A stretch of DNA of 64,000 nucleotides, taken from NCBI RefSeq assembly GCF_001477625.1, contig NZ_CP013692.1:2046001-2110000 (forward strand), in the 5' to 3' direction. The notes beneath the pieces were generated by a model. The model worked only from the letters and a program-made list of their open reading frames with translations. It was not told where the DNA came from and made no database searches. A program made the translations under genes and the position numbers. The DNA is from Paucibacter sp. KCTC 42545. Its GTDB lineage: Bacteria; Pseudomonadota; Gammaproteobacteria; Burkholderiales; Burkholderiaceae_C. Shown piece by piece: positions 30,768 to 53,099 of the stretch. Position 1 is the stretch's first letter, and each line of letters begins with the position of its first letter.

Positions 30768-33700
30768 ATGCCCTCGATCATCACAAGCCTTTCCACCGAC
30801 CAAATTGATGGTCTGACCACGGCGACTCTGCGCAAGCTGACTTCAGAAGACTGGGCAGCATTTACGTCTGATCAGCTGAAAGCGCTGACGACCGAGCAGA
30901 CGGCCAGCTTGTCCACCTTGGCGATCAAGTCACTCAGCTCGGAGCAGATCAGCTTCTTCGAGACCGAGGATTTCGCTAAATTCAGCACGGCGGCCATACA
31001 GGCCTTCAGCGCGAATCAGATCAAGGGCATGACCAGTGAGCAAGCACAGGCACTGACCACTAAGCAGGTCAGTGCCTTTGTCACTGAACACATGGCCGCT
31101 TTGGAGTCGCAGGACCTGAAAGCCTTGGGGACCGAGGTTTTCAAGGTCATCAACTCCAAGCAGCTCGGCGCCCTGACCTCGGATCAGCTTTCAAAGATCG
31201 AGACCGAAGACGTCGCCAAGCTGAGCACCTCAGCACTGCGAGGCGTCACCAGTGATTCCCTGGGCGCATTTGGCACCGACCAGATCAACGCCCTGCTGAC
31301 CAATCAGATTCAAGCCCTCACGACCCAACAGCTCAAGGGCATGGGAACCGACCAGGTTGCCAAACTGGAAACCGAGGATTTGCGTGCCCTGACGACGGCG
31401 CAGATTCGGTCCTTGGCCACCGATCAATTCAACGCACTGGGCACCGACCAGATCGCCCAGTTGACCACGACACAGGTCCAGTCGCTTAACACCACCCAGC
31501 TCGCTGGCATGGAGTCGGCCGACCTGAAAGCCCTGGCCACCGACCAAGCCAAGATCCTCAGTTCCGCGCAAGTCGGCGCCCTGGCTTCGGACCAACTCAA
31601 CAAGCTGGAGACCGAAGACTTTGCCCTGCTGAGCACGGCCGCCCTGCGTGGCCTGACGTCCGACGGCATCCGTGCCCTGGTGTCTGACCAGATCAACGCT
31701 TTGGGCTCGGCTCAGATCCAATCCCTGACGACCCAGCAGCTCAAGGGTCTGGGTACCGATCAAGTTGCCTCGATGGAAACCGCCGATCTGCGCGCGCTGA
31801 CCACCGTGCAGCTGCGCTCCCTCGGCACCGATCAGTTCAATGCGCTGGGCACCGATCAGATTGGCCAGCTGACCAACGCACAGATCCAATCCCTGACGAC
31901 GGCTCAACTCGCCGGCATGGAATCGGCCGACCTGAAGGCCCTGGCCACCGATCAAGCCAAGCTGCTCAGCTCCGCTCAGATCGGCGCGCTGGCCTCGGAT
32001 CAGCTCAACAAGCTGGAGACCGAAGACTTCGCCCTGCTGAGCACGGCCGCCCTGCGTGGCCTGACTTCCGACGGTATCCGTGCCCTGGTGTCTGACCAGA
32101 TCAACTCCCTGGGCTCGAACCAGATCCAGTCGCTGACGACCCAGCAACTCAAGGGCTTGGGAACCGATCAGGTCGGCTCGATGGAAACCGCCGATCTGCG
32201 CGCGTTGACCACGGCACAGATCCGCTCTTTGGCGACCGACCAATTCAATGCCCTGGGCACTGACCAGATCGGTCAGCTGACCACCCTGCAGGTGCAAGCC
32301 CTGACGACGGCCCAGTTCGCCGGCATGGAATCGGCCGACCTGAAGGCCTTGGCCACCGATCACGCCAAGATCCTCAGCTCCGCTCAGATCGGCGCCCTGG
32401 CTTCGGATCAGCTCAACAAGCTGGAGACCGAAGACTTCGCCCTGCTGACCACGGCCGCCCTGCGTGGCTTGGGTTCGGACGGTATCCGTGCCCTGGTGTC
32501 TGACCAGATCAATGCTTTGGGCTCAGCTCAGATCCAGTCCCTGACAACCCGGCAACTCGACGGCCTGGGCACCGATCAGATCGCCGCGATGGAGACCGCC
32601 GATCTGCGCGCCTTGACCACGGTACAGATTCGCTCCCTGGGTACCGACCAGATCAACGCCCTGGGCACCGATCAAATTGCTCAGCTGACCAGTGCGCAGA
32701 TCCAAGCCCTGACGACCGCCCAGGTCGCCGGCATGGAGTCGGCCGACCTGAAGGCCCTGGCCACCGACCAAGCCAAGCTGCTCAGCTCCGCTCAGATCGG
32801 CGCCCTGGCCTCGGATCAGCTCAACAAGCTGGAGACCGAAGACTTCGCGCTGCTGACCACGGCCGCCCTGCGAGGCCTGAGCTCCGACGGCATCCGTGCT
32901 TTGGTGTCTGACCAGATCAATGCCCTGGGCTCAGCGCAGATCCAGTCGCTGACCACTCAGCAACTCAAGGGTCTGGGCACCGACCAGATCGCCGCGATGG
33001 AAACCGCCGATCTGCGCGCTTTGACCACGGCGCAGATCCGTTCCCTCGGCACCGACCAGATCAACGCCCTGGGCACCGACCAGATCAGCCAGCTGACCAC
33101 AGCTCAGATCCAGGCCCTGACGACCGCACAAATGGCCGGCATGGAGTCGGCCGACCTGAAGGCCCTGGCCACCGACCAGGCCAAGATCCTCAGCTCCGCT
33201 CAGATCGGCGCCCTGGCTTCCGACCAGCTCAACAAGCTGGAGACCGAAGACTTCGCCCTGCTGAGCACCGCTGCATTGCGGGGCCTGACGTCCGACGGCA
33301 TCCGTGCCCTGGTGTCTGATCAGATCAATGCCCTGGGCTCGAACCAGATCCAGTCACTGACAACCCGTCAACTCGACGGTCTGGGCACCGATCAGATCGC
33401 CTCGATGGAAAGCGCCGATCTGCGTGCGCTGACCACGGGTCAGCTGCGCTCCTTGGGCACCGACCAACTCAATGCCTTGGGCACCGACCAGATCGGCCAA
33501 CTGACGACCACTCAGATCCAGGCCATCACGACAACACAGGCCGCCGGAATCGAAACCACCGATATCCGTGCCCTGACCACTGAACAGGCCAAGGTGCTGA
33601 GTTCGGCCCAAATCGCCGCACTGGCTTCTGACCAGCTCAGCAAGATGGAGACCGAGGACTTCGCATTGCTGACCACGGCCGCCCTGCGTGGCCTGGGTTC

Positions 33701-36700
33701 GGACGGCATCCGTGCCCTGGTGTCTGATCAGATCAATGCCCTGGGCTCGAACCAGATCCAGTCGCTGACCACTCAGCAACTCAAGGGTCTGGGGACCGAT
33801 CAGGCCGCCTCGCTGGAGACCGCTGATCTGCGTGCCTTGACCACGGCGCAGATCCGCTCCCTGGCCACCGATCAGTTCAATGCCTTGGGCACTGACCAGA
33901 TCGCTCAGCTGACCACCCTGCAAGTGCAAGCCCTGACGACGGCCCAGTTCGCTGGCATGGAGTCAGCCGACCTGAAGGCCTTGGCTACCGACCATGCCAA
34001 GATCCTCAGCTCCGCTCAGATCGGCGCCCTGGCTTCGGATCAGCTCAACAAGCTGGAGACCGAAGACTTCGCCCTGCTGACCACGGCCGCCCTGCGTGGC
34101 TTGGGTTCGGACGGCATCCGTGCCCTGGTGTCTGACCAGATCAATGCTTTGGGCTCGAACCAGATCCAGTCGCTGACGACCCGGCAACTCGACGGCCTGG
34201 GCACCGATCAGATCGCCGCGATGGAAACCGCCGATCTGCGCGCCTTGACCACGGCGCAGATCCGCTCCCTGGGTACCGACCAGATCAACGCACTGGGCAC
34301 CGACCAGATTGCTCAGCTCACCAGTGCGCAGATCCAAGCCCTGACGACGGCTCAGTTCGCCGGCATGGAGTCGGCCGACCTGAAGGCCCTGGCCACCGAC
34401 CAGGCCAAGATCCTCAGCTCCGCTCAAATCGGCGCCCTGGCCTCGGATCAGCTCAACAAGCTGGAGACCGAAGACTTCGCCCTGCTGACCACCGCCGCCT
34501 TGCGTGGTCTGGGTTCGGACGGCATCCGTGCCTTGGTGTCTGATCAGATCAATGCCCTGGGCTCGAACCAGATCCAGTCGCTGACCACTCAGCAACTCAA
34601 GGGTCTGGGCACCGATCAGGTCGCCTCACTGGAAACCGCTGATCTGCGTGCCTTGACCACGGCGCAGATCCGCTCCCTGGCCACCGATCAGTTCAATGCC
34701 TTGGGCACTGATCAGATCGCTCAGCTGACCACCCTGCAGGTGCAAGCCCTGACAACGGCCCAGTTCGCTGGTATGGAGTCGGCCGACCTGAAGGCTCTGG
34801 CCACCGACCAGGCCAAGATCCTCAGCTCCGCTCAGATCGGCGCCTTGGCGTCGGATCAGCTCAACAAGCTGGAAACCGAAGACTTCGCCCTGCTGAGCAC
34901 CGCCGCCCTGCGTGGCCTGGGTTCGGACGGCATCCGTGCCCTGGTGTCTGACCAGATCAATGCCTTGGGCTCGAACCAGATCCAGGCGCTGACCACTCAG
35001 CAACTCAAGGGTCTGGGGACTGATCAAGTCGCCTCGCTGGAAACCGCTGATCTGCGTGCATTGACGACGGCACAGATCCGCTCCTTGGCCACCGATCAGT
35101 TCAATGCCTTGGGCACGGACCAGATCGCTCAGCTGACCACCCTGCAGGTGCAAGCCCTGACGACCGCCCAGTTCGCTGGCATGGAGTCGGCCGACCTGAA
35201 GGCTCTGGCCACCGACCATGCCAAGATCCTCAGCTCCGCTCAGATCGGCGCCCTGGCCTCGGATCAGCTCAACAAGCTGGAGACCGAAGACTTTGCCCTG
35301 CTGACCACCGCCGCCCTGCGTGGCTTGGGTTCGGACGGCATCCGTGCCCTGGTGTCCGACCAGATCAATGCCCTGGGCTCAGCTCAGATCCAGTCGCTGA
35401 CGACCCGGCAACTCGACGGTCTGGGCACCGATCAGATCGCCGCAATGGAAACCGCCGATCTGCGCGCCTTGACCACGGCGCAGATCCGCTCCCTGGGCAC
35501 CGACCAGATCAACGCCCTGGGCACCGATCAAATTGCTCAGCTGACCAGTGCGCAGATCCAAGCCCTGACGACGGCTCAGTTCGCCGGCATGGAGTCGGCC
35601 GATCTGAAGGCCCTGGCCACCGACCAAGCCAAGCTGCTCAGCTCGGCTCAGATCGGCGCCCTGGCCTCGGATCAGCTCAACAAGCTGGAGACTGAAGACT
35701 TTGCCCTGCTGACCACGGCCGCCCTGCGTGGCCTGGGTTCGGACGGCATCCGTGCCCTGGTGTCTGATCAGATCAATGCCCTGGGTTCGAACCAGATCCA
35801 GTCGCTGACCACTCAGCAACTCAAGGGTCTGGGCACCGATCAGATCGCCTCGATGGAGACCGCCGATCTGCGCGCTTTGACCACGGCGCAGATCCGCTCC
35901 CTCGGCACCGACCAACTCAACGCCCTGGGCACCGACCAGATCAGCCAGCTGACCACCGCTCAGATCCAGTCCCTGACGACCGCACAGATGGCCGGCATGG
36001 AGTCGGCCGACCTGAAGGCCCTGGCCACCGACCAGGCCAAGATCCTCAGCTCCGCTCAGATCGGCGCCCTGGCCTCGGATCAGCTCAACAAGCTGGAGAC
36101 CGAAGACTTCGCCCTGCTGAGCACAGCCGCCCTGCGTGGCCTGACCTCCGACGGCATCCGCGCCCTGGTGTCTGATCAGATCAATGCCCTGGGCTCGAAC
36201 CAGATCCAGTCGCTGACCACTCAGCAACTCAAGGGTCTGGGGACCGATCAGGTCGCCTCCTTGGAAACCGCTGATTTGCGTGCCCTGACGACGGCTCAGA
36301 TCCGCTCCTTGGCCACCGATCAATTCAATGCCTTGGGCACTGATCAAATCGCTCAGCTGACCACCCTGCAGGTGCAAGCCCTGACGACGGCCCAGTTCGC
36401 TGGCATGGAGTCGGCCGACCTGAAGGCCCTGGCCACCGACCATGCCAAGATCCTCAGCTCCGCTCAGATCGGCGCACTGGCCTCGGATCAGCTCAACAAG
36501 CTGGAGACCGAAGACTTTGCCCTGCTGACCACGGCAGCCCTGCGTGGCCTGACCTCCGACGGCATCCGTGCCCTGGTGTCTGACCAAATCAATGCTCTGG
36601 GCACAGCACAGATCCAGTCGCTGACAACCCAGCAACTCAACGGCTTGGGCACCGATCAGATCGCCTCGATGGAAACGGCCGATCTGCGCGCCCTGACCAC

Positions 36701-39479
36701 GGCACAGCTGCGCTCCCTCGGCACGGATCAAATCAATGCCCTGGGCACCGATCAGATAGCACAGCTCACCAGTGTGCAGATCCAAGCCCTGACGACGGCT
36801 CAGTTTGCCGGCATGGAGTCGGCCGACCTGAAGGCCCTGGCCACCGACCAAGCCAAGCTGCTCAGCTCGGCTCAAATCGGCGCCCTGGCTTCGGATCAGC
36901 TCAACAAGCTGGAGACCGAAGACTTTGCCCTGCTGACCACGGCAGCCCTGCGTGGCCTGACGTCCGACGGCATCCGTGCCCTGGTGTCTGACCAGATCAA
37001 TGCCTTGGGCTCGGCCCAGATCCAGTCGCTGACGACCCAGCAACTCAATGGCCTGGGCACCGATCAGGTCGCTGCGATGGAAACCGCCGATCTGCGCGCC
37101 TTGACCACGGCACAGATCCGTTCCCTGGCCACCGAGCAGCTCAACGCCATGGGCACCGATCAGATCAGCCAGCTGACCACAGCTCAGATCCAGTCCCTGA
37201 CGACGGCCCAGATGGCCGGGATGGAATCGGCCGACCTGAAGGCCCTGGCCACCGACCAGGCCAAGATCCTCAGCTCCGCTCAAATCGGCGCCCTGGCATC
37301 GGATCAGCTCAACAAGCTGGAGACCGAAGACTTCGCCTTGCTGAGCACGGCCGCCTTGCGTGGCTTGGGTTCGGACGGCATCCGTGCCCTGGTGTCTGAC
37401 CAGATCAACGCCCTGGGCTCGAACCAGATCCAGTCGCTGACCACTCAGCAACTCAAGGGGCTGGGCACCGATCAAGTCGCCTCGCTGGAAACCGCTGATC
37501 TGCGTGCCTTGACCACGGCGCAGATCCGCTCCTTGGCCACCGATCAGTTCAATGCTTTGGGCACGGACCAGATCGCTCAGCTGACCACGCTGCAGGTGCA
37601 AGCCCTGACGACGGCCCAGTTCGCTGGTATGGAGTCGGCCGACCTGAAGGCCCTGACCACCGATCAGGCCAAGATCCTTAGCTCCGCTCAGATCGGCGCC
37701 CTGGCCTCGGATCAGCTCAACAAGCTGGAGACCGAAGACTTTGCCCTGCTGAGCACGGCCGCCCTGCGTGGCCTGGGTTCGGACGGCATCCGTGCCCTGG
37801 TGTCTGACCAGATCAACGCCTTGGGCTCGAACCAGATCCAGTCGCTGACCACTCAGCAACTGAAGGGCCTGGGCACTGATCAGCTTGCCAGCTTGGAAAC
37901 CGCCGACCTGCGTGCCCTGACGACGGCTCAGATCCGCTCACTGGGTACCGATCAGTTGAATGCTCTGGCCTCCGACCAGATCGGCCAGCTGACCTCGGCG
38001 CAGATCCAAGCGCTCAGCACGGCTCAGTTTGCCGGTATGGAAACGGCTGACCTGAAGGCACTGGCCACCGACCAGTTCAAGCTACTCAGCTCGGCCCAAC
38101 TGTCTGTACTTGGCTCCGACCAGGTGCGAGCGCTGGAAACCGCAGACCTGAGCCAGCTGAGCACCAGTGCCCTGCGCGGATTCGGATCGGACCAGCTGGC
38201 CGCCTTCATCACCGATCAGATCGAGGGCCTCAGCACTGCACAAATTGCGTCTCTGAGCACCACGCAAATCCGCGGCATGACGAGTGAACACTTCCGGGTC
38301 ATGGAATCGGAGGACGTGCAGGCCTTGAGCACGGCACAAATCCGCGCCATCGCCACCGACCAGTTCTCCGCCCTGCACTCGGATCAGCTGACGGCGATGA
38401 GCAGCGCACAGCTGGCCGCGATCAACTCTGAGCAACTGCACACGCTGAGCTCGGAAGAGATTCGCGCCTTCGACAGCAGCGACATCAGCTACTTCAGCAC
38501 AGCGGCTCTGCGTGGCTTCACCAGCGACCAGATCCAGGCTCTGCAAACTGATGACATCAAGGCCTTGACCTCGGCCCAGTTCTCTACCTTCACGACGGAG
38601 CAGATCCACTCGCTGATCAGCGAGCAGATTGCCGGACTGGATGCGTCGGATATCAGCAAGCTCTCGATGACGCAGGCGACCTCCTTCGCCACCGAGGCGA
38701 TCAACGCCATGAGCAGCGATCAGCTCAATGCACTGGTCGCGGCCCAGGTCTCGCCCATCATCCTTGACCTGGACGGCAACGGTGTGGAGACCATCTCTGC
38801 CGACAAGGGCGTTACTTACGACCTCTTGGGCATGGGTGTCTGGCAGAAGTGGGGCTGGGTGGGCGGCAATGACGGCCTGCTGGTGCGCGATATCAACGGC
38901 GACGGCAAGATCAATGACGGCCGCGAGCTCTTCGGCGAAGGCACCCGCCTGGCCGATGGCTCACACGCCAAGGATGGCTACGCCGCGATGGCCGCGATGG
39001 ACAGCAACCATGACGGCAAGCTGGATGCCAAGGACAAGGACTTTGCCCAGCTGCAGGTTTGGGTGGATGGCAACCACGACGGCATCACCCAGGCCGGCGA
39101 GCTGAAGTCCCTGGACTCCCTGCATATTGCCAACCTGGATCTGCATGCCCAGACCTCGACGGCGGTCAACAACGGCAATCTGGTGGGCCTGGTCTCGGGT
39201 TATCAGGCGACGGATGGCAAGACGCACGATATGGCCGACGTCTGGTTCAGCCGCGACTCCAGCCAAGCGGCCACGACCACGGCGCCCACGGCCGTGACGG
39301 GCAGCGACGGAGCCAAGCTGCAGCTCAGCGATGTGCTGGTGCCGCCCGCCGAGGTGCCACTGCCAGGAGCGCCAAGTGCCGACAAGCTGACGCATCAGGC
39401 CATCGACGGCCCAGCGCTGATCAAGCACAAGAACCCAGGCGATGACGACGACCTGAGTCGCCACCTGCCTCTGATCTGA
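30768..39479 (+). CDS. Giant octapeptide-repeat protein 1 with C-terminal calcium-binding FrpC-like module
   Basis: This 2903-residue protein has no signal peptide, and I see no cysteine. From residue 8 to about 2663 it is an unbroken series of 332 octads of the form L-x-[TS]-x-[QD]-[LIF]-x-[ASG], for example LTTAQIRS or LGTDQINA. About a quarter of residues are Ser/Thr. Residues 280-2455 are 16 near-identical copies of a 17-octad unit. The C-terminal module starts [13 protein letters not shown] and holds further acidic loops (DINGDGKINDGRELFG, DSNHDGKLDAKD, DGNHDGITQAGEL), like the FrpC self-processing module. The preceding residue is Ser, not the scissile Asp. The tail is acidic and ends HLPLI. 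It is probably a type I-secreted surface or extracellular protein; no transporter is nearby. Function unknown. Confidence 0.85.
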   Translation: MPSIITSLSTDQIDGLTTATLRKLTSEDWAAFTSDQLKALTTEQTASLSTLAIKSLSSEQISFFETEDFAKFSTAAIQAFSANQIKGMTSEQAQALTTKQVSAFVTEHMAALESQDLKALGTEVFKVINSKQLGALTSDQLSKIETEDVAKLSTSALRGVTSDSLGAFGTDQINALLTNQIQALTTQQLKGMGTDQVAKLETEDLRALTTAQIRSLATDQFNALGTDQIAQLTTTQVQSLNTTQLAGMESADLKALATDQAKILSSAQVGALASDQLNKLETEDFALLSTAALRGLTSDGIRALVSDQINALGSAQIQSLTTQQLKGLGTDQVASMETADLRALTTVQLRSLGTDQFNALGTDQIGQLTNAQIQSLTTAQLAGMESADLKALATDQAKLLSSAQIGALASDQLNKLETEDFALLSTAALRGLTSDGIRALVSDQINSLGSNQIQSLTTQQLKGLGTDQVGSMETADLRALTTAQIRSLATDQFNALGTDQIGQLTTLQVQALTTAQFAGMESADLKALATDHAKILSSAQIGALASDQLNKLETEDFALLTTAALRGLGSDGIRALVSDQINALGSAQIQSLTTRQLDGLGTDQIAAMETADLRALTTVQIRSLGTDQINALGTDQIAQLTSAQIQALTTAQVAGMESADLKALATDQAKLLSSAQIGALASDQLNKLETEDFALLTTAALRGLSSDGIRALVSDQINALGSAQIQSLTTQQLKGLGTDQIAAMETADLRALTTAQIRSLGTDQINALGTDQISQLTTAQIQALTTAQMAGMESADLKALATDQAKILSSAQIGALASDQLNKLETEDFALLSTAALRGLTSDGIRALVSDQINALGSNQIQSLTTRQLDGLGTDQIASMESADLRALTTGQLRSLGTDQLNALGTDQIGQLTTTQIQAITTTQAAGIETTDIRALTTEQAKVLSSAQIAALASDQLSKMETEDFALLTTAALRGLGSDGIRALVSDQINALGSNQIQSLTTQQLKGLGTDQAASLETADLRALTTAQIRSLATDQFNALGTDQIAQLTTLQVQALTTAQFAGMESADLKALATDHAKILSSAQIGALASDQLNKLETEDFALLTTAALRGLGSDGIRALVSDQINALGSNQIQSLTTRQLDGLGTDQIAAMETADLRALTTAQIRSLGTDQINALGTDQIAQLTSAQIQALTTAQFAGMESADLKALATDQAKILSSAQIGALASDQLNKLETEDFALLTTAALRGLGSDGIRALVSDQINALGSNQIQSLTTQQLKGLGTDQVASLETADLRALTTAQIRSLATDQFNALGTDQIAQLTTLQVQALTTAQFAGMESADLKALATDQAKILSSAQIGALASDQLNKLETEDFALLSTAALRGLGSDGIRALVSDQINALGSNQIQALTTQQLKGLGTDQVASLETADLRALTTAQIRSLATDQFNALGTDQIAQLTTLQVQALTTAQFAGMESADLKALATDHAKILSSAQIGALASDQLNKLETEDFALLTTAALRGLGSDGIRALVSDQINALGSAQIQSLTTRQLDGLGTDQIAAMETADLRALTTAQIRSLGTDQINALGTDQIAQLTSAQIQALTTAQFAGMESADLKALATDQAKLLSSAQIGALASDQLNKLETEDFALLTTAALRGLGSDGIRALVSDQINALGSNQIQSLTTQQLKGLGTDQIASMETADLRALTTAQIRSLGTDQLNALGTDQISQLTTAQIQSLTTAQMAGMESADLKALATDQAKILSSAQIGALASDQLNKLETEDFALLSTAALRGLTSDGIRALVSDQINALGSNQIQSLTTQQLKGLGTDQVASLETADLRALTTAQIRSLATDQFNALGTDQIAQLTTLQVQALTTAQFAGMESADLKALATDHAKILSSAQIGALASDQLNKLETEDFALLTTAALRGLTSDGIRALVSDQINALGTAQIQSLTTQQLNGLGTDQIASMETADLRALTTAQLRSLGTDQINALGTDQIAQLTSVQIQALTTAQFAGMESADLKALATDQAKLLSSAQIGALASDQLNKLETEDFALLTTAALRGLTSDGIRALVSDQINALGSAQIQSLTTQQLNGLGTDQVAAMETADLRALTTAQIRSLATEQLNAMGTDQISQLTTAQIQSLTTAQMAGMESADLKALATDQAKILSSAQIGALASDQLNKLETEDFALLSTAALRGLGSDGIRALVSDQINALGSNQIQSLTTQQLKGLGTDQVASLETADLRALTTAQIRSLATDQFNALGTDQIAQLTTLQVQALTTAQFAGMESADLKALTTDQAKILSSAQIGALASDQLNKLETEDFALLSTAALRGLGSDGIRALVSDQINALGSNQIQSLTTQQLKGLGTDQLASLETADLRALTTAQIRSLGTDQLNALASDQIGQLTSAQIQALSTAQFAGMETADLKALATDQFKLLSSAQLSVLGSDQVRALETADLSQLSTSALRGFGSDQLAAFITDQIEGLSTAQIASLSTTQIRGMTSEHFRVMESEDVQALSTAQIRAIATDQFSALHSDQLTAMSSAQLAAINSEQLHTLSSEEIRAFDSSDISYFSTAALRGFTSDQIQALQTDDIKALTSAQFSTFTTEQIHSLISEQIAGLDASDISKLSMTQATSFATEAINAMSSDQLNALVAAQVSPIILDLDGNGVETISADKGVTYDLLGMGVWQKWGWVGGNDGLLVRDINGDGKINDGRELFGEGTRLADGSHAKDGYAAMAAMDSNHDGKLDAKDKDFAQLQVWVDGNHDGITQAGELKSLDSLHIANLDLHAQTSTAVNNGNLVGLVSGYQATDGKTHDMADVWFSRDSSQAATTTAPTAVTGSDGAKLQLSDVLVPPAEVPLPGAPSADKLTHQAIDGPALIKHKNPGDDDDLSRHLPLI
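31605..38132. repeat. 16 tandem copies of a 408-bp (136-codon) unit
   Basis: The landmark LETEDFAL recurs every 408 bp from 31605 to 37725, 16 times, with no insertion or deletion (spacing checked at 31608, 32016 and 37728: 6120 bp is exactly 15 x 408). Each unit is 17 octads of 24 bp. Protein copies are nearly identical while many third positions differ. Copies fall into classes by two marker octads, and the order contains the triplet A-B-C three times (copies 2-4, 9-11, 12-14), so there is a third level of about 1224 bp. Degenerate copies in the same register flank both ends. Confidence 0.95.
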
Positions 39480-39490
39480 GTTTGATCGAC

Positions 39491-39531
39491 GACAAATCCG
39501 GATGCATCGTGAACGATGCATCCGGTTTGTC
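39491..39531 (+). terminator. Strong intrinsic terminator after giant gene 1
   Basis: Twelve-base arms (39498-39509 and 39514-39525) with a 4-base loop extend outward by GACAAA/TTTGTC with one bulged base. This gives a stem of about 18 pairs that starts 12 bp after the stop codon. The short U tract lies within the stem edge. It should separate transcription of giant gene 1 from giant gene 2. Confidence 0.8.
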
Positions 39532-39687
39532 CACTTTGTGAGGCCCTGTTTGAACGAGAGCCAAGCGCCGCCACCTAATATCCCAGCCAAGCGTCGCGCC
39601 TACCCCAGGGCGAGCGCGCCGCTGGGTTTGAACCCTTGTCCTTTTGCAATGCTGCTGCCGGCTCCAGCCTGATCAAGCAGAACAGCC

Positions 39688-42600
39688 ATGGCCACCTCCG
39701 TCCCCACACCACCGAGCCCCGAAGAGCTTGCTCAAATGAGCACGCAGGCCCTCGCCAAGCTCAGTCCGGCTGTGTGGGCGCAGTTCACCCCTGACCATAT
39801 TGCGGCGCTGAGTTATGAGCAGGCCCTGTCCTTGAAGGCGGGGGCGTTCAAATCTTTGCCCGCCAGCTTGATGTCGGCCTTTTCAGTCGAACAGCTGCAA
39901 GCCCTCACCCCCACCGTCTTCAAGGCGCTCAATACGGCCCAGTTGGGCGCATTGACCCTGGACCAGTTTTCTCAGCTGCTGCCCGAGCAGGTCGGCAGCC
40001 TGCAGTCCAAACAATTTCCGGGCATACGTGCCGAGCAATTTGAGGTCTTGGGCGTGGACCAGTTGGTGCAGCTCAATCCCGCTCAGCTCAAGGGCATGTC
40101 CACCAGCCTGTTGGCGGTAATCGCACCCAACGAGCTCAGCGAACTGAGCACCAAGTTCATTTCCAGCCTCTCCGGTGGCCAACTGAGCTCCCTGGCGCCC
40201 GAACAAATCACCGCCTTGACGGTGGACCAAATCGGCAGTCTCAACGGCAGCCACGGCAGTGCGCTGAAGGCGACACTGCTCGCCACCTTGGCGCCGGAAG
40301 CCTTGCAAAACCTGTCCTCCGCGGCCATCCGAGCCATCAGCGGCGCCACCTTGCGCGAACTGCCGGCTGAGCTGCTGCAGACCTTCGCCAGCGGCCAAAT
40401 TCGAGCCCTGAGCACCGGTCAGATCAGCAGCCTGGGTAGCGCTGGCATCGACGCCCTGAGCAGCGATCAAATCCCTGCCCTGAGCACGGCGCAACTCAAA
40501 AGCCTCAGCACCAGCCAACTGGGCGTGCTCACCACCAGCGATTTTGAGCAGCTGGGCACCAAGGCCTTGCAGGGCTTTAGCGCCAAGCAGCTGGGCGTGC
40601 TGCAGTCGGACCAGCTCGGCGGGCTCAGCGGCGCCCAACTCGGCGTGCTGACCTCCGCCCAAGCCATGGGGCTCAAGTCGGATCAGCTGCAAATGCTGAC
40701 CAGCGATGCCTTGCCCGGCTTGTCCACCGGCGCGATCCGTGGCCTGACGCTCAGTGCCTTGCAAGGCCTGGTCAGCGATCAAGTAGGCTCGCTGGCCACC
40801 CGCCAGATCGCCTCATTCAGCTCCCGTCAGTTTGCGGTGCTGGACAGCGCGGACCTGATGGCCATGAGCACCCAGCAGTTCCGCAGCCTCAGCTCCGCCC
40901 AGCTCGTGGCCCTGAGCAGCCGTCAGATCGGCGCCCTGGAAACCGAAGACGTGGCCGCCATCAGCAGCGCCGGCATACGCGCACTCAGCGGCAATACACT
41001 CAATGCCTTGGCCAGCGATCAGCTGCAGGCCCTGGTCACCGCCCAGATCGCGGCATTGAGTTCGGCCCAAGTCTCCGCGCTGAGCAGCAAGCAGCTGAGC
41101 CTGATGGAGACCGAGGATCTGCGCAGCCTGAGCACGACGGCCCTGCAATCCTTGCGCAGCACCCAGCTGAGCGCACTGAGCAGCGATCAGTGGCAAAGCC
41201 TGTCCACCGTACAAATTCGATCACTGAGCACCGATCAAATTCAGTGGCTCAGTACCGAGCAGCTCAATCTGATGAGCACCTTGCAGATGGCTGCGCTCAG
41301 CTCCAAGCAATTGCAAGCGCTCAGCGCCAATCAACTGGCCCATCTGGAGACCGACGACTTTGCCGCGCTGTCAACCGCCGCTTTCAAGTCGCTCACCGGG
41401 GAGCAACTGCATTCGCTGGATCCTAATCTCTTGCGCGTGCTGAGCAGCAGCCAAGCTGCGATTCTGAGCTCGGCCCAGATTGCTGGACTGAGCTCCGAGC
41501 AGTTCGTGCAGATCGGCAGCGAAGCCTTGCAGGCCTTCAGCAGTGGTGCTATTCGAGGCTTGCAAGCCACCCAGCTGCACCAGTTGACCGAGGCTCAGGT
41601 GCAAATGCTGAGTTCACGCCAGTTGATGGCGCTGAGTTCGGAGCAAATCGCAGCGCTGCGCATCGATCAGCTCATCGCCCTGGGTACCGAGCAATGGGCG
41701 GCCCTGGGTTCACAGCAGGTGGCAGGCCTGAGCCCTGAGCGCATTGACGAGCTGAGCATGCAGTCCCTCAATGCCTTGAGCAGCGCCGGGCTGCGAGCTT
41801 TGTCGGCCGCCCAGGTCGATGCCTTGACCGTTGACCAATGGGGTGCCATCAGCTCGCGCCAGATGGCCTTGATGAGCTCACAGCAATTGGCCAAGGTGGG
41901 TACCGACGAGATGTGGGCCCTGCCGGTTGATGCCTTGTTGGCCATCAGCACCGCCGCCATCCGGGGACTCACCTCCAGCCAACTGGCCAATATCGACCTG
42001 AGCCAGGCGGCGACCCTGACTACCGCCCAAATTGCTGCGCTGAGCAGCCAGCAGCTGGGCCAACTCAGCACCGACGCCATCCAGGTCATGCTGAGCGAGC
42101 AATTCAGCGTCTTGAGTGATAAGCAGCTGATGGGCCTGAGCACCCAACAAGTCGCCGCCATGGAGCTGGCCGATGTGGCCGCCCTGGGGGCGCGCGGCGT
42201 GCGAGCCCTGTCGGCGAAGCAACTTGCCGCCATGACGCTGGATCAGCTGACCGGGCTCAACAGCGCGCAGGTCGCGGGCCTGGGCACCTCACAACTCGCC
42301 CTGCTCAGTTCGGATCAAATCATGGCCATCGTGGCCGACGATCTGGCCGCCATGTCCACGGCCGCCTTGCGCGCTCTGTCAACCGCTCAGTTCGCGGCCT
42401 TTGGCGCGGCGGAACTGGTGCAGCTCAACAGTGCCCAGCTCGCCACGCTGGGCTCGGTGCAGCTGGCTGCCATCAGCACGGATGAGATCGCCCAGCTGCT
42501 GCCCCAGCAATTCGCCGCCCTGAACGCCGATCAGCTGCGCTTTCTCGACAGCGCACAACTGACAGCCATCAGCGCAGATGGCCTGGCCGCCATCAGCAGC

Positions 42601-45009
42601 CAGGCCTTGCGCGGCTTGAGCAGCGTCCAGCTGCGCCAGCTCAATAGCGAGCAGTTCGCCTCACTCAACAGCCAGCAACTGCAATCACTCAATAGCGAGC
42701 AGCTGCGCAGCCTGGAAACCAATGACTTGGTGGCGCTGACCGAAGCGCAATGGGCGGTGATGGGCTCGACCCAGCTCAATGGTTTGAGTTCGGCCCAGAT
42801 CGCCAGCATTGAACTCGTGGACATTGCCGCCATCAGCAGCAATGCCTTGCGCGGCTGGTCCACCGCCGGATTGGATGCCTTGCAAAGTGATCAGGTGGCC
42901 ACCCTCACGGCGCAACAAGTGGGTGTTTTGCAGGCCAATCAGATGGCCGGGCTGAACAGCGCCGACATCGCCCTGCTGTCGGCGGAAGGCATGGGCTTGC
43001 TCAGCAGCAAGTCCATCCAGGCCTTGAACAGCAGCCAGGTGCATGCACTTAATGGCGCGCAGGTCCAGGCCCTGAGCAGCGAACAGATCCGCGCCATCAG
43101 CACCTTGGCGGTGGGCAATTTGTCCAGCGAGGCGGTGCTGGCACTGGCCACGGAGCAGATCGCGGCCTTGAGCACGGCTCAGCTGCGCGCCCTTAGCAGC
43201 GAGGAGCTGCAGCTGTTTTCCCAGCAACAACTCCACAGTTTGGAATCCGACCAGATTCGCGGCCTGGGTTCGCGCCAACTCAGCATGCTGGCCAGCGAGC
43301 AATTTGCCCTGCTGGCCAGCGAACAGCTGAGTCTGCTGAGCAGCGCACAAATTCGCGGCCTCGCCAGCGAGGACATCACGGCACTGAGCCCCTTGCAGCT
43401 GCAGGCCTTAAGCACCGGCGCGCTTGCTGGCATGAGCACCGTGCAAATCGCCAGCTTGAGCGGCGCGCAGGTCGAGGGCCTGAGCACGCTGCAGATTCGC
43501 TCACTGTCCTCCCTGGCCCTCAACGGCTTGAGCACCGAGGCCTTTGATGCCTTGGGCTCCGAGCAAATTGCCGCCCTCAGCAGCGCGCAACTGGCGCGCC
43601 TGAGCACCGAAAACATCTCTTTGCTGGCAGGCAGCGATATGCACGCCATGCTGAGCGAATCCCTGCGCGCCTTCAGCAGCTTGCAACTCGGCGCCTTCAG
43701 CACCGAAGCCATTGCTGAGCTGAGTCAGGCGCAGATGAGTGCCCTGAGCAGCCGCCAAGCGGGCGGATTCAAGCTCGCCCAATTGGCCGCCATCGAGACC
43801 GAAGACATCGTGGCGCTGAGCACCTCCGTCTTGCAGTCACTCAGCACCAACCAACTCAATGCCTTCACCACGGATCAGTTCGGCGCCCTGCTGACCCAGC
43901 AGTTGAACGGCCTCAGCAGCAAGCAAATTCGCTCCCTGGAGACCGAAGACATAGCCGCCTTGCAGACTTGGCAGATCGCCGGGCTGAATTCCCGCAGCAT
44001 CGCCGCGCTGAGCACCGATCAAATCCGCGCGCTGGAAACCGAGGACATCGCCGCCCTCAGCTCGGCCCAGCTGCGCGCCTGGAGCACGGCTCAGATTCAC
44101 GCACTGCTGACGGAGCAGATCCAGGGCCTGGAATCGCAGGACATCGCCAGCCTGAATATGCAGCAGGTGCACGCCTTCAGCACCGAGCAAATCGCGGCCA
44201 TGAGCGCCAACCAGGTGGACGCCTTGTTTGCGGCCACACCCATCGTCTTGGATCTGGACGGCAATGGCGTTCACACCACCGCCGCCGCCCAAGGCGTGCA
44301 GTTCGACCTCAATGCCACCGGCAAGAGCCAGCAATGGGGCTGGACCGATGGCAAGGACGGTTTGTTGGTGATGGACCGCAACCACAACGGGCAGATCGAC
44401 AACGGCGCCGAGCTCTTCGGCAGCGGCGTGCATTTGGCCGATGGCAAACGCGCGGGCGACGGCTATGCCGCCATGCGCAGCCTGGACAGCAATGGTGACG
44501 GAGTGCTGGACACACACGACGCGGCCTTCGCCGACCTGCGCGTCTGGGTAGACCGCAACCGCGATGGCTTGAGCGCAGCGGCAGAGCTGCTCAACCTGTC
44601 TGAGCTGAACATCGTCTCGCTGGACTTGCATGCCCAAAAGAGTAGCCAAATGGATGCGGGCAATCTGATCGGCCTGGTGTCCGGCTACACCTTGGCCGAC
44701 GGCAGCCAGAAGCTCATGGCCGATGTCTGGTTCGCCAAAAACACGCCCGGGGATGTGCCGCTGGCCCAGGAGATCGCCACTCATGGCGAGCACGATGCCG
44801 CCCAGCCTGGGGCGGCCAACGCAAACACCCCGCTGCCCAATCTGCAGGATCTATTGGTGGCTGCCGATCAAAGCCTGCCGGCCTCACTGAGCCAGGCGGC
44901 CCCGACCGCGCAGGCCCAGGCGGCGGATCCAGACACCCTTCTGCGTCAGGCGCTTGCACACCGCCGACCCGCCCATGAAGATGGCGACCCCTGGTTGCCG
45001 CTGATCTAA
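39688..45009 (+). CDS. Giant octapeptide-repeat protein 2, paralogue of the preceding gene
   Basis: This 1773-residue protein has the same design: no signal peptide, no cysteine seen, about 187-188 octads from residue 17 to about 1516, then the same C-terminal module ([54 protein letters not shown]) and the same end, WLPLI. Here the octads are diverged and there is no homogeneous 408-bp array. Acidic octads still recur at multiples of 17 octads. The first repeats align with those of protein 1 (LSPAVWAQF against LTSEDWAAF), so the two arose by tandem duplication. Thr, not Asp, precedes the module's Pro. Likely secreted; function unknown. Confidence 0.85.
39736..44223. repeat. Diverged octad repeat tract in giant gene 2
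   Basis: About 187 units of 24 bp run in constant phase (octads begin at residues 17, 25 and 33, and still at 1505), without net insertion or deletion. Consensus is L-[ST]-[ST]-x-Q-[LIV]-x-[AS], with Ser favoured over the Thr of protein 1. Nucleotide similarity between units is low, so this is an old expansion compared with the 408-bp array next door. Confidence 0.85.
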
Positions 45010-45061: not shown

Positions 45062-45568
45062 ATGAGCGAACAGAACGACGCCCCCAAGATTCACGCCCTG
45101 GCCGATGTGGCCAGCCCCCATATCGGCCCGCGCACCCGCATCTGGCAGTTTTGCGTGGTGCTGGCAGGTGCCCGCATCGGCGCGGACTGCAATATCAACG
45201 CGCAGGTGTTGATTGAAAACGAGGTCGTGATCGGGGATCGGGTCACCGTCAAGAGCGGCGTGCAGTTATGGGACGGCCTGCGGGTGGAGGACGATGTCTT
45301 CATCGGCCCCAACGCCACTTTCACCAATGACCGCACACCGCGCTCACGCCAGTACCCGGCCGAGTTTCAAACCATCACGCTGGAGCGTGGCGCCTCCATC
45401 GGGGCCAATGCCACCATTCTGGGCGGGGTGCGTATCGGGGCTGGCGCCATGATTGGCGCCGGTAGCGTGGTCACACGCGATGTGCCGCCGGGCGAGCTTT
45501 GGGTGGGCAATCCGGCGCGCAGCCGGGGCCCGGCGCCGGCACCTTGGGTGAAAAGCGAAGAGGCTTAA
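45062..45568 (+). CDS. Left-handed beta-helix acyltransferase (FdtC/WbpD-like)
   Basis: This is a 168-residue hexapeptide-repeat acyltransferase, with repeats such as [20 protein letters not shown] and [17 protein letters not shown] and the usual WVGNPAR ending. Close relatives N-acetylate a 3-amino sugar nucleotide such as dTDP-3-amino-3,6-dideoxyhexose or UDP-GlcNAc3NA. It is convergent with, and overlaps by 4 bp, the aminotransferase gene that would make such a 3-amino sugar. It closely resembles the N-terminal domain of the fusion protein at 46697, so the island has two such acyltransferases. It starts 52 bp after giant gene 2, with no terminator seen between. Confidence 0.85.
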
Positions 45569-46731
45569 ACGCTGGCCCGTACGACGCGAATCACGCGATC
45601 GATCTGCGCCTCGCTCATGCCGGGCCACAGCGGCAAGCTCAACACCTCACGGTGCATGGCCTCGCTGATGGGGAAGTCACCCGCGGCATAGCCTAGTTCG
45701 GCATAGGCCGGCTGCAGATGCGGCGGCACCGGGTAGTGAATCAGGCTGCCCACACCTTGGCGGGCGAGTTCGGCCTGCAGGCGGTCGCGTGCCTCATGCC
45801 TGACGACAAACAAATGCCAGGCCGACTCCAGATGCGCGGCCGGTGGTGTTGGCAGTTGCAGGGGCAGACCCGCCAAGCCATCGAGCAAACGTGTAGCAAT
45901 GCGGCGCCGCTCTTCGGTCTGAGCCTGCAGATGCGGCAGCTTGGCAGACAGCACGGCGGCCTGGATTTCGTCCAGCCGCGAGTTACGGCCCTTGACCTCG
46001 TTGTGATACTTGACCCGCGAGCCGTAGTTGCGCAGCACCCGGATCTGATCCAGCAAGGCCGGGTCCGCGCCGGTCACACCGCCACCGTCACCAAAAGCCC
46101 CGAGGTTTTTGCCAGGATAAAAGCTCCAGGCCGACAAATCCGCCAGGCTGCCAACGGCGCGGCCCCGAACCATCGCCCCATGGGCTTGGGCGCAATCGTC
46201 CAGCACCTTGAGGCCATGGCGCCGGGCGATCTGCAAGATCTCATCCATCTCGGCTGGCAAGCCGTAGAGATGCACCGGCAGGATGACCTTGCTGCGCGGC
46301 GTGATGGCCGCCTCGATACGGGCGGGGTCGATGTTGTAGCTGAGCGGGTCAGGCTCCACTGGCACCGGGCGGGCGCCACATTGGCTGACCGCCAACCAGG
46401 TGGCGATATAGGTATTGGCGGGCACGATGACCTCATCGCCTGGCCCAACGCCCAGGGCTTGCAGGGCCAAAGCCAGCGCATCCAGACCATTGGCCACGCC
46501 CACACAGCCTTCCGCGCCCACGCTTTGCGCATAGGCCGCCTCGAAGCTCTGCAATTCCCGCCCCAACAAGAACCAGCCGCTACGGGCTACCCGCAGCAGT
46601 GCGGCATCAATCTCGGCCTGCGCGACTTGGTAAGCGGGCTGCAAATTCAGGAAGGGGATGGGCGCCTCGGCCACGGCAGCTTCAGGCACTGCAGCTTCAG
46701 GCACGTTGAATGGCGGCGAGGTAGTCGTCAT
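45565..46731 (-). CDS. DegT/DnrJ/EryC1-family sugar aminotransferase (FdtB/QdtB-like)
   Basis: This is a PLP-dependent aminotransferase of 388 residues. The Schiff-base lysine is Lys208 in [15 protein letters not shown], and DDCAQAHGA and [14 protein letters not shown] are typical for enzymes that aminate dTDP-3-keto-6-deoxyhexoses. It follows the WxcM-like ketoisomerase gene and starts inside its last 35 bp, so the two are coupled. A short Ala-Pro-Val-Glu repeat ([14 protein letters not shown]) precedes the conserved start [11 protein letters not shown] longer frame into the previous gene is rejected. The likely product is dTDP-3-amino-3,6-dideoxygalactose or -glucose. Confidence 0.85.
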
Positions 46732-47647
46732 AGCTGCGGATGTAATCTTGAGCGTCATAGGGGTCCGAGGCCAGCACCAGCAGGACGGCGTCGGCGCTGA
46801 AGCGGTACTGTATGCCCCAGACCATGGGCGGGATGTGTAAGCCCAGGCGGGGGTTGTCCAGCAGCAACTCGTCGCGGCGCTCGCCATCGTCCAGCACCAC
46901 GCTGAGGCTGCCCTTCACACAAACCAGGAACTGATGGCAGAGCTTGTGCGCATGCTCGCCCCGCACCTCGCGGCTGGGCACGTCATAGACCATGAAAAAG
47001 CGCTGCGGCGTGAAGGGCAGTTGCTTGCCGATCTCCCCCACGCAAAGCGAGCCTCGCATGTCCACCGCTTGCGGCAGTTGCACCAGCGAGGCGCCCGCCA
47101 CCTGCAAGCGCTCAGGCACCTGGCCAGGCCGTGTTGCCGAGGGCTGCGTGGCTTGCACCGCCGGATGCAAGGTATCCACATAACCGATGACATGAGCGGG
47201 ATTACCCGCCACGATGGCATTGGCCGGCACATCACGAGTCACCACCGCGCCGTCCTGCACCATGGCATGAGCGCCAATGGTGACACCTGGCCTCACGGTC
47301 GCATTGGAGCCCAAGCTGGCCCCCTTGCGCACGCGGGTCTGCACAAACTGCTCGGGCCGCTGCTTGCTGCGCGGGAAGGCATCGTTGCTGAAGGTCACAT
47401 TGGGGCCGATGAAGACATCGTCCTCGATGCGCACCCCGTCCCAGAGTTGCACGCCGCACTTGATCGTCACCCGGTCGCCCACCTCCACATCGTTCTCGAT
47501 GAAGACATGGTCACAGATATTGGCGTCCCGCCCGATGCGCGCGCCCGGCAGGATGTGCACAAAGGCCCAGACCCGTGTCCCCGCGCCGATATGCGGGCTC
47601 TCGACCAGGGCATGGGCATGGATGGAGCAAGAGGAGGTCGACGGCAT
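46697..47647 (-). CDS. WxcM-like fusion: hexapeptide acyltransferase plus FdtA-type cupin ketoisomerase
   Basis: This 316-residue protein has two domains. Residues about 10-150 form a left-handed beta-helix acyltransferase ([20 protein letters not shown], then [20 protein letters not shown]). Residues about 185-316 are a cupin like FdtA/QdtA, with [19 protein letters not shown], the signature of dTDP-4-oxo-6-deoxyglucose 3,4-ketoisomerases. The same fusion is known as WxcM in Xanthomonas. Together with the aminotransferase it makes and acylates a dTDP-3-amino sugar. RmlA/RmlB, which would supply the substrate, are not in the window. Start chosen at [14 protein letters not shown]; the frame continues upstream without conservation. 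Confidence 0.88.
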
Positions 47648-47909
47648 GGCTTGGACTTGAAAACAAGAATGCCTGAACGCTAACAGCTGCGGGCGCCCTG
47701 CGATGGCCAGAATTCCGGGGCAATCCCTGCCCTGCAATTCTTTGCTGGGCCACGCCCCTTGCAAGGCCACTCTGCCCCAAGTTCCCTGGGCTGCAAAATA
47801 GACCACCCGCCTGCGCTTTTTTCAGGGATCAAGCACCCTCAAGTGCGGCGAAAGTCACAACAAGCCTGTGGTTCACCCTGGGCACCCTTCAACCAACCTT
47901 CGGCACACC

Positions 47910-51809: not shown

Positions 51810-53099
51810 ATGCGTACATTCACCGCTTCCGAAGCCATGCTGGAGCGCGCCGAGCGCGTCATCCCCCTGGGCAGCCAAACCTTCAGCAAGAGCCGCACCC
51901 AATACCCCAAGGGCGTCTCGCCCTTCTTCATCGAACGTGGCCAGGGTGCGCGCGTTTGGGATGTGGACGGCAATGAGTATCTGGACCTGGTGATGAGCCT
52001 GGCCTCGGTCACCCTGGGCTATCAAGACGCAGAGGTCAACAGCGCCGTCAGCCGCCAGCTGCAGGACTCCGGCGTCATCTTCAGCCTGCCGCACCGCCTG
52101 GAATGCGAGGTGGCCGAGCTGATCGTGGACATGGTGCCTTGCGCCGAGAAAGTGCGCTTCGGCAAGAACGGCTCTGACGCCACCTCCGGCGCCGTGCGCC
52201 TGGCCCGCGCCTTCACCGGCCGCGACCACATTGCGGTTTGCGGCTACCACGGCTGGCAGGACTGGTATATCGGCAGCACCGCCCGCCATCGCGGCGTGCC
52301 CGAGGCCACCCGCGCCCTCACCCATGCCTTTGCCTACAACGAGCTGAACTCGCTGGAGGCCTTGTTCCAGCAGTTCCCCGAGCAGTTGGCCGCGGTGATT
52401 CTGGAACCCATGAATGTGGCGGCGCCACAGCCCGGCTTTCTGGAAGGCGTCAAGGCCCTGGCCCACAAGCATGGCGCCTTGCTTGTGTTTGATGAAACCA
52501 TCACCGGCTTCCGTTTCGCCAACGGCGGCGCGCAGGAGCTGTTCGGCGTCACCCCCGATCTGGCCACTTTCGGCAAGGGCTTGGCCAATGGCTTCCCGGT
52601 CTCTGCCATCGCCGGCCGCGCCGATGTGATGCAGCTGATGGAGGAGATCTTCTTCTCCTTCACCTTCGGCGGCGAAGCCCTGTCCCTGGCTGCCGCCAAG
52701 GCCACGCTGAGCAAGCTTAAGCGCGAGCCTGTTTTGGCCGGCATCGCGGCCAAGGGCGAACAGCTGCAAACCGGTTTGCGCCGCTTGCTGGATGAACAGA
52801 ACTTGAACGATTTGTTCTCGGTCAGCGGCCATCCGAGCTGGACCTTCCTGAACGTGCGCGAAGCGCGCGGCGCCAACATCTTCGACATCAAAACCCTGCT
52901 GGCGCAAGAGCAGCATCAGCGCGGCGTGCTGGGTCTGGGCACCCACAACCTCAGCCACGCTCACAGCAGCGGCGACATCGAGCAGGTCCTGGCCATGTAC
53001 CGCGAGCTGTTGCCCATGGTGGGTGAAGCCGCCAGCGACGGCCGGGTGCCGGAACTCTTGCGCTGCGCCCCCCTGGTGCCCTTGTTCAAGCTGCGCTGA
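51810..53099 (+). CDS. Class III (HemL-like) PLP aminotransferase in the nonulosonate operon
   Basis: This 429-residue fold-type I enzyme resembles glutamate-1-semialdehyde aminomutase. The PLP lysine is Lys256 in TFGKGLANGFP, FDETITGFRFANGGAQELFGV is the cofactor-ring aspartate segment, and RFGKNGSDATSGAVRLAR is the phosphate loop. Heme synthesis is unlikely as its role: it is inside the pse operon and overlaps pseG by one base (TGATG). It probably adds a second amino group to the sugar, or exchanges one after a redox step by the adjacent reductase. Confidence 0.87.
   Translation: MRTFTASEAMLERAERVIPLGSQTFSKSRTQYPKGVSPFFIERGQGARVWDVDGNEYLDLVMSLASVTLGYQDAEVNSAVSRQLQDSGVIFSLPHRLECEVAELIVDMVPCAEKVRFGKNGSDATSGAVRLARAFTGRDHIAVCGYHGWQDWYIGSTARHRGVPEATRALTHAFAYNELNSLEALFQQFPEQLAAVILEPMNVAAPQPGFLEGVKALAHKHGALLVFDETITGFRFANGGAQELFGVTPDLATFGKGLANGFPVSAIAGRADVMQLMEEIFFSFTFGGEALSLAAAKATLSKLKREPVLAGIAAKGEQLQTGLRRLLDEQNLNDLFSVSGHPSWTFLNVREARGANIFDIKTLLAQEQHQRGVLGLGTHNLSHAHSSGDIEQVLAMYRELLPMVGEAASDGRVPELLRCAPLVPLFKLR

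What the first reader, a model, noticed from the sequence alone, without database searches (positions are those of the whole stretch)
30768..39479. Giant secreted-type protein made of 332 unbroken octads
The frame holds 332 consecutive 8-residue units (residues 8-2663), phase-checked at the start, at the 408-bp landmarks and at the last unit, with no indel. The pattern T-x-x-Q at each unit start looks like a helix capping box, which suggests a solenoid of very short helices rather than a beta-helix RTX roll. I know no characterised protein with this octad fold. No signal peptide or cysteine, an acidic C-terminal calcium module and a hydrophobic LPLI end point to type I secretion.
Basis: partly seen in the sequence, partly recalled or inferred. 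Interest (0 to 1): 0.85.

Follow-up and report, generated by a model that had tools for sequence, protein, structure and literature searches.

The report
Giant secreted-type short-helix repeat protein
A Roseateles bacterium carries a 2,903-residue protein built from 332 eight-residue units, each predicted to be one tiny helix, ending in a calcium-binding-type cap and lying in a gene cluster with an export machine and a sugar-attaching enzyme, which suggests a giant sugar-coated surface fibre.

Summary
In detail: 30768-39479 (+) encodes 2,903 aa, residues 8-2663 being 332 in-register octads, without cysteine. The repeat is not unknown: it is Pfam PF20080 (ALTTAQ), and an apparently designed protein (PDB 9zem, 'HeliScrew4') shares 40 of 110 residues; no paper on the natural family was found. 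The C-terminus has the FrpC self-processing-module fold with its calcium ligands, but Asp-Pro is Ser-Pro (Ser/Thr-Pro in 31 of 31 related stretches read), so FrpC-type self-cleavage is not expected. A diverged paralogue follows. The main new result is linkage: octad genes sit near a type I secretion system (T1SS) and a TPR-GT41 (O-GlcNAc-transferase-like) gene. In a 200-genome family sample all 34 genomes with the GT41 orthologue are among the 43 with the octad gene, 26 of 34 on one contig within 70 kb; the cluster recurs in two more distant groups. Best reading: a giant extracellular solenoid, exported by T1SS, probably O-glycosylated on octad Ser/Thr, capped by a non-cleaving calcium module. 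Export, glycosylation and role are inferred.

The parts
30768..39479 (+). giant octad gene (2903 aa); GAGG ribosome-binding-like sequence about 8 bases upstream of the ATG
   Evidence: PF20080 2193 bits
30789..38756 (+). 332 in-register octads, residues 8-2663, consensus L-[TSG]-[TS]-x-Q-[IL]-x-[AGS]
   Evidence: AlphaFold2 short-helix solenoid for residues 416-823
31197..38132 (+). 17 higher-order units of 136 residues / 408 bp (residues 144-2455); units 2-16 have mean pS 0.31 and pN 0.056 in 105 pairs
38754..39260 (+). C-terminal module, residues 2663-2831, FrpC self-processing-module fold; residue before the Pro is Ser (FrpC: Asp414)
   Evidence: 6sjw E 3.8e-38; Foldseek 6sjw E 1.7e-14, TM 0.83 by target; residue mapping
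39261..39476 (+). predicted-disordered tail ending in acidic residues and LPLI, candidate uncleaved type I secretion signal
   Evidence: pLDDT below 50 over model residues 408-468; LI ending in most octad relatives of alignment A3
39688..45009 (+). diverged paralogue (1773 aa), same octads, same C-terminal module, ends WLPLI
   Evidence: (PF20080 772 bits)
39736..44223 (+). 187 octads of the paralogue, residues 17-1512
44236..44787 (+). C-terminal module of the paralogue, Thr-Pro at the scissile position
45565..46887 (-). DegT/DnrJ/EryC1 sugar aminotransferase
   Evidence: 77-97% identical neighbour of octad genes in L033 and L028
46697..47806 (-). fused hexapeptide acetyltransferase + FdtA-type dTDP-sugar ketoisomerase
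   Evidence: Pfam; PDB 4mzu 'WxcM-like protein' E 4.9e-106

Best explanation
The gene encodes a giant extracellular alpha-solenoid. Each octad forms one 4-6-residue helix, and 332 of them stack into a continuous superhelical rod (predicted for residues 416-823, extrapolated to the rest). The protein is made without a signal peptide and is exported, C-terminus first, by the linked type I secretion system (inferred from linkage and architecture). Outside the cell, calcium folds the C-terminal FrpC-SPM-like module, which caps the rod; with Asp-Pro replaced by Ser-Pro it does not cut itself off in the FrpC way (inferred). Before export, the linked cytoplasmic TPR-GT41 enzyme attaches O-linked sugars to the Ser/Thr residues at the start of each short helix, using donors to which the adjoining sugar-nucleotide genes may contribute (inferred, the least certain step). 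The product is a glycosylated surface or matrix fibre, used for adhesion or coat building (inferred).
For: Fold: AlphaFold2 mean pLDDT 90.3, pTM 0.72, all 50 listed helices starting at octad position 3; 9zem aligns without gaps, 40 of 110 identical. Cap: 6sjw by sequence E 3.8e-38 and by fold TM 0.83 by target; Trp pair and calcium ligands kept in 26 of 26 rows apart from D/N exchanges. No self-cleavage: S/T-P in 31 of 31 stretches. Secretion: ABC-HlyD-OEP operon beside a GT41 gene; HlyD orthologue in 14 of 18 genus genomes, on the contig of the module match within 27 kb in 12 of 14. GT41: orthologue in 13 of 18 genus genomes, 12 of 13 on the same contig within 31 kb; family sample: all 34 are inside the 43 octad genomes, 26 of 34 on the same contig within 70 kb. 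Octads, HlyD and GT41 on one contig also in 6 genomes of another class and 1 of another order of the same class (parts confirmed by Pfam in G389 and G062). GT41 resembles XcOGT, E 3.5e-80.
Against: GT41 presence alone does not separate octad genomes from controls outside the family (19 of 28 against 5 of 10), and HlyD-type genes are in all 18 genomes asked, so only position counts. 9 of 28 PF20080 genomes have no GT41 match; one of them (G409) has a long array. In the family sample 9 of 43 octad genomes lack the GT41 orthologue (6 of the 9 have a more distant GT41 on the octad contig, read). In the genus G012 and G017 have the module without either orthologue, and G011 without GT41. Only 7 of 39 named loci show GT41 and 6 of 39 a clear T1SS within their flanks. 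G368 has octads and GT41 but S/T at position 3 in only 38% of octads. Gene neighbourhoods are related by descent, so the Fisher p of 1.9e-30 overstates independence; in the genus alone p = 0.065. No glycan, secretion or surface data exist here. The AlphaFold2 alignment was mostly shifted windows of the same protein, which favours a regular model. The acceptor sites are a guess.
Confidence: 0.58

Rival explanations
1. T1SS-exported octad fibre or adhesin as above, but not glycosylated: the GT41 enzyme acts on another product of the cluster, and its linkage reflects a shared surface-polysaccharide island.
For: The roughly 24 kb between the paralogue and the T1SS in the own genome hold many sugar and acyl biosynthesis genes; GT41 genes are common (127 of 200 family genomes have some GT41 match).
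Against: All 34 genomes with the orthologous GT41 are among the 43 with the octad gene; pairing recurs in other classes; GT41 lies directly beside the T1SS operon in the own genome and directly after the octad frame in G389 and G368.
Confidence: 0.25
2. It is the main S-layer or coat protein of the cell, a two-dimensional lattice made of octad rods.
For: T1SS linkage, calcium module, no Cys, two large tandem paralogues and a linked amino-sugar pathway would suit a coat.
Against: Nothing seen tests lattice formation; frame length and copy number vary between genomes; known S-layer proteins were seen only as paper titles and abstract starts and were not compared.
Confidence: 0.1
3. An FrpC-type clip-and-link protein: calcium triggers cleavage at the start of the C-terminal module and cross-linking of the released array to a neighbour.
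For: Same fold and calcium sites.
Against: The Asp whose side chain forms the anhydride (PMC7078468, passages) is Ser here and Thr in the paralogue; S/T in 31 of 31 related stretches; FrpC Asp478 is also absent from all 26 aligned rows.
Confidence: 0.03
4. A cytoplasmic scaffold that is never secreted.
For: No N-terminal signal peptide is apparent by eye in the sequence (no predictor was run).
Against: T1SS linkage, a module of an exoprotein family whose Ca2+ affinity in FrpC (about 150 uM, PMC7078468 passages) fits outside conditions, and a disordered tail with a recurring hydrophobic end.
Confidence: 0.04

Closest known systems
Pfam PF20080 ALTTAQ repeat
   Same: Same octad repeat; 2193 and 772 bits against a cut-off of 26.4.
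   Different: Pfam models 38 residues; the name states no function. Fold, 136-residue unit, C-terminal cap and the T1SS/GT41 linkage were not found in print.
FrpC self-processing module (N. meningitidis RTX exoprotein, PDB 6sjw/6sjx)
   Same: Sequence and fold of residues 2663-2831, calcium ligands, the Trp pair, Asp579.
   Different: Scissile Asp replaced by Ser/Thr, Asp478 lost; near the C-terminus rather than internal; no RTX nonapeptides.
HeliScrew4, PDB 9zem (apparently a designed protein, judged by its name)
   Same: Octad period, gap-free alignment over 110 residues, 40 identical.
   Different: 120 residues, Pro common at position 3 where this protein has Ser/Thr. I saw only its sequence match and name, not its coordinates; it was not among the 50 Foldseek rows listed.
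Mesothelin (animal extracellular protein)
   Same: Right-handed solenoid of 24 short helices (PMC10035497 abstract); top Foldseek hit.
   Different: Irregular ARM/HEAT-like repeats of 27-37 residues with disulphides (passages); TM 0.34 at best; no evidence of common descent.
FlmG of Caulobacter
   Same: Cytoplasmic O-glycosylation of an exported structural protein (PMC7591256 abstract and passages).
   Different: FlmG acts on flagellins exported by the flagellar apparatus with pseudaminic acid; here substrate, donor and exporter are inferred, and the exporter would be type I. FlmG was not compared by sequence.

Membership tests
PF20080 ALTTAQ repeat | profile score over the curated cut-off | tested here: met
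   2192.9 and 771.7 bits against 26.4
FrpC-type self-processing module | SPM fold | tested here: met
   6sjw E 3.8e-38; Foldseek TM 0.83 by target
FrpC-type self-processing module | calcium-binding residues and Trp451/Trp519 | tested here: met
   kept in the 26 rows of A3 apart from D/N exchanges. The Asp that closes the second loop is D2756, invariant; my numbering makes it FrpC 510, the paper writes D511, and the variable column that one search prints for 511 is the next one
FrpC-type self-processing module | scissile Asp-Pro bond | tested here: not met
   Ser-Pro here, Thr-Pro in the paralogue; S/T in 31 of 31 stretches from 29 of 39 loci, the other 10 loci giving no pattern match
RTX protein | glycine-rich nonapeptide GGxGxDxxx | tested here: not met
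   no GGxGxD in either protein
Type I secretion substrate | linked ABC / HlyD / outer-membrane genes | tested here: met
   operon in L027; conserved linkage
Type I secretion substrate | export depends on the C-terminus and on that ABC transporter | not testable with these tools
   needs an experiment
LapA-type retained adhesin | N-terminal retention module with a cleavable linker | not tested
   octads start at residue 8; no retention-module search was made
ARM/HEAT or mesothelin-type solenoid | same fold by structural alignment | tested here: inconclusive
GT41 protein O-glycosyltransferase (linked gene, outside the window) | GT41 domain with the XcOGT catalytic region | tested here: met
   PF13844 E 1.9e-77; XcOGT E 3.5e-80 with the aligned His and Lys kept (their catalytic role is recalled)
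GT41 protein O-glycosyltransferase (linked gene, outside the window) | glycosylates the octad protein | not testable with these tools
   needs glycoproteomics

The most novel reading that the evidence does not exclude
A dedicated, widely distributed glyco-secretion system: a GT41 enzyme decorates hundreds of Ser/Thr residues at the helix starts of a minimal eight-residue alpha-solenoid in the cytoplasm, the modified chain is threaded through a type I secretion system, and outside it folds from a calcium-dependent cap (an SPM fold that gave up, or never had, self-cleavage) into a very long single-chain helical rod used as surface coat or adhesin.
Probability: 0.35. Interest if true: 0.85.

Novelty: new variant of a known kind. 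Interest (0 to 1): 0.62.

Why it matters
It gives a predicted fold and a likely mode of life to a Pfam repeat family for which I found no paper, shows that nature uses the same octad pattern as an apparently designed protein (9zem), and proposes a testable pairing of a GT41 protein glycosyltransferase with a type I secretion substrate, for which two searches showed no precedent (no paper; 15 of 19 papers listed, none with the type I secretion term). It also suggests that this module fold is more often without than with the Asp-Pro bond of FrpC: of 134 pattern matches in 120 homologues of this module, 15 have Asp (loose pattern, sample drawn from this protein's relatives).

Tried and rejected
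Rejected: Pfam CAAP1, Prok_Ub, Phage_TAC_7 and LRR_EndoS hits on the array, unrelated families, some above their cut-offs, that I read as low-complexity matches; sigma-factor NCBIfam hits far below cut-off; an LRR reading, since the prediction is all-helical; long antisense ORFs such as 35379-37859 (-), which I read as following from codon repetition. Alignment A1 (78 windows of both proteins) had 872 columns for 408 residues and was replaced by A2 (21 rows, 568 columns). Promoter and terminator scan around the start: nothing found. GT41 presence without position is not informative outside the family (19 of 28 against 5 of 10). Ser/Thr at octad position 3 as a mark of GT41 linkage: 0.99, 0.71, 0.70 and 0.87 in P0001, P0002, L097 and L099, 0.24 in the GT41-less L101, but 0.38 in L098, which has GT41, so only a trend; the GT41 status of the other arrays in that call was not set. 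Literature searches for ALTTAQ, HeliScrew, PF20080/PF26745 and GT41 with T1SS gave no relevant paper (the seven hits and the listed ones were seen as listings only). Searches on octapeptide repeats and short-helix solenoids gave prion and ARM/HEAT papers; the mesothelin paper came.

Rows left out: A3 used 24 of the 31 locus stretches (L051-L055, L062 and L063 were not put in). One search covered the 18 genus genomes returned for n=150. Match lists are truncated by the tool, so same-contig counts are lower bounds; one search scored 150 of 205 candidates. The thresholds for 'orthologue' (679 bits for GT41 in the family; about 850 for GT41 and 480 for HlyD in the genus) and for 'octad plus module' (E at most 2e-99) were set after seeing the gaps in the lists. 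Two further family genomes (G554 at 611 bits, G587 at 478 bits) have a GT41 just below the threshold on a contig with octad-only hits; they are in neither the 34 nor the 43.

Full report
What is there. The reading frame 30768-39479 (+) encodes 2903 residues; residues 8-2663 fall into 332 octads without a break. Column counts over the 332 units: position 1 L 84%, position 3 T 61% and S 37%, position 5 Q 68%, position 6 I 41% and L 33%, position 8 A 42%. The longest in-phase run with hydrophobic 1, S/T 3 and hydrophobic 6 is 281 units, against at most 3 in 200 shuffles. Seventeen octads form a 408-bp higher unit; units 2-16 differ at 31% of synonymous but 5.6% of nonsynonymous sites (mean over 105 pairs), which points to purifying selection on the protein. 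A sister genome (L028, a Roseateles MAG) aligns without gaps over its 1239 available residues, 1183 identical; about seven of the 136-residue units lie in that stretch, so their register is kept.

The neighbour 39688-45009 (+) is a diverged paralogue, 1773 aa, with 187 octads, the same C-terminal module and the end WLPLI. In the own genome all listed PF20080 matches fall in these two frames (150 of 205 candidates scored), as do both module matches. The module (query: the last 240 residues) occurs in 16 of 18 genus genomes, with two or more matches in 13.

Family. The repeat is Pfam PF20080, 'ALTTAQ repeat'; 28 of 398 genomes of the phylum sample have it, the own included. No paper in the held library was found to name it. 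The PDB has a protein, 9zem 'HeliScrew4', apparently designed, that aligns with the octads without gaps, 40 of 110 residues identical; no paper on it was found.

C-terminal module. Residues 2663-2831 match the FrpC self-processing module (6sjw, E 3.8e-38) and its fold (TM 0.83 by target; the C-terminal model has lower overall confidence, pLDDT 73.7, and its last 61 residues are disordered). FrpC uses Asp414, whose side chain attacks its own carbonyl to give an anhydride (PMC7078468, passages). Here that residue is Ser2662, Thr in the paralogue, and S or T in 31 of 31 stretches in 29 of 39 related loci, the other 10 giving no pattern match. FrpC Asp478 is also replaced in all 26 aligned rows, while Trp451, Trp519, Asp456, Asp579 and the ligands of the EF-hand-like loops are kept apart from D/N exchanges. 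One numbering point: the Asp closing the second loop is D2756, invariant in A3; by my count it is FrpC 510, where the paper writes D511, and the variable column printed for 511 is the next one. In 120 homologues from the protein search, 134 pattern matches had Asp before the Pro in 15; the 6 matches in proteins that passed my octad test were all Thr, and 15 proteins gave no match. The pattern is loose and some matches may not be modules. I infer a calcium-folding cap without FrpC-type cleavage.

Gene cluster. Downstream lie a DegT aminotransferase, a fused hexapeptide acetyltransferase/FdtA ketoisomerase resembling PDB 4mzu, and other sugar and acyl genes. At genome 2115.5-2122.5 kb, beyond the window and about 24 kb past the paralogue's end, are four genes in line on the minus strand: TPR-GT41 glycosyltransferase, ABC transporter, HlyD, outer-membrane efflux protein. 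The GT41 protein aligns with XcOGT (E 3.5e-80), with the His and Lys that I recall as catalytic conserved.

Linkage. Genus: GT41 orthologue in 13 of 18 and HlyD orthologue in 14 of 18 genomes; 12 of 13 and 12 of 14 lie on a contig with a module match, 9.6-30.4 kb and 5.3-26.8 kb away. The two genomes without a module match (G015, G016) lack both orthologues by my thresholds, but so do G012 and G017, which have the module, and G011 lacks GT41; Fisher p for GT41 in the genus alone is 0.065. Family sample of 200: octad-plus-module hits (E at most 2e-99) in 43, GT41 orthologue (679 bits or more) in 34, all inside the 43 (p 1.9e-30, not corrected for descent); 26 of 34 on one contig within 70 kb, median 14.8 kb; 7 on different contigs and 1 at 436 kb. 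Of the 9 octad genomes without the orthologue, 6 (G426, G457, G478, G543, G562, G565) have a more distant GT41 on the octad contig within about 21 kb, read by eye. In 39 named related loci with flanks of up to 10 kb, GT41 relatives were found in 7 and clear T1SS relatives in 6 (L041, L044, L047, L060, L062, L065); partial T1SS hits in L038, L045 and L066 were not counted. Beyond the family: of 28 PF20080 genomes in the phylum sample (own included) 19 have GT41, against 5 of 10 controls, which is not informative by presence; but in 10 of the 18 others with GT41 it lies on a PF20080 contig within 25 kb, and in 7 (six of group f47, and G389) an HlyD gene lies in the same cluster (which asked 18 genomes; all 18 have HlyD-type genes somewhere). 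Pfam confirmed the parts in G389 (GT41, OEP, HlyD, ABC), in G062 (octads, HlyD, ABC, GT41) and GT41 in G368. In G389 the octad protein carries the S-P form of the module.

Mechanism. Shown: sequence architecture, family membership, linkage. Predicted: the solenoid and the SPM fold. Inferred: export by the linked T1SS, folding outside from the C-terminal cap, no self-cleavage, and cytoplasmic O-glycosylation of octad Ser/Thr by the GT41. A precedent for the last step is FlmG, a cytoplasmic O-glycosyltransferase that modifies flagellins (PMC7591256 abstract and passages; glycosylation before secretion is stated there for flagellin). Ser/Thr at position 3 seems not to be forced by the fold, since 9zem and several natural arrays often use Pro or another residue there, but the correlation with GT41 has a counterexample (G368). 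Whether the fibre serves adhesion, matrix or coat is open.

Verdict. The new points are the architecture with a cap that has lost the FrpC cleavage residue, and the octad-T1SS-GT41 gene cluster.

Noticed in passing
39492-39530: Near-perfect inverted repeat (ACAAATCCGGATGCATCG ... CGATGCATCCGGTTTGT) just after the octad gene, without a T run; possibly a transcription terminator or attenuator between the two octad genes (by eye).
   Followed up: no
46697-47806: Fused acetyltransferase + FdtA ketoisomerase, 4mzu-like, beside a DegT aminotransferase: a dTDP-3-acetamido-deoxyhexose type pathway next to the octad genes (the pathway is recalled).
   Followed up: partly
   Followed up: partly
G058, G118, G106: Genomes of group f47 show 29-39 GT41 profile matches each, several on one contig, besides octad genes: an expanded GT41 set.
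   Followed up: no
P0003-P0122: Accession PF26745 is listed as a precomputed domain on most of the 120 listed homologues of the C-terminal module; the Pfam copy scanned did not report it for the window protein, so I do not know its name or text.
   Followed up: no
51810-63648: Class-III aminotransferase, GNAT, DUF4910, KAS III, SDR and Antibiotic_NAT-like genes between octads and T1SS; with FkbH-like and AMP-ligase-like genes beyond the window (by eye) they look like an acylated-sugar or small-molecule island.
   Followed up: no
31230-39590 (-): Seven antisense ORFs of 175-826 codons mirror the array; I read them as a by-product of codon repetition and not as genes.
   Followed up: no
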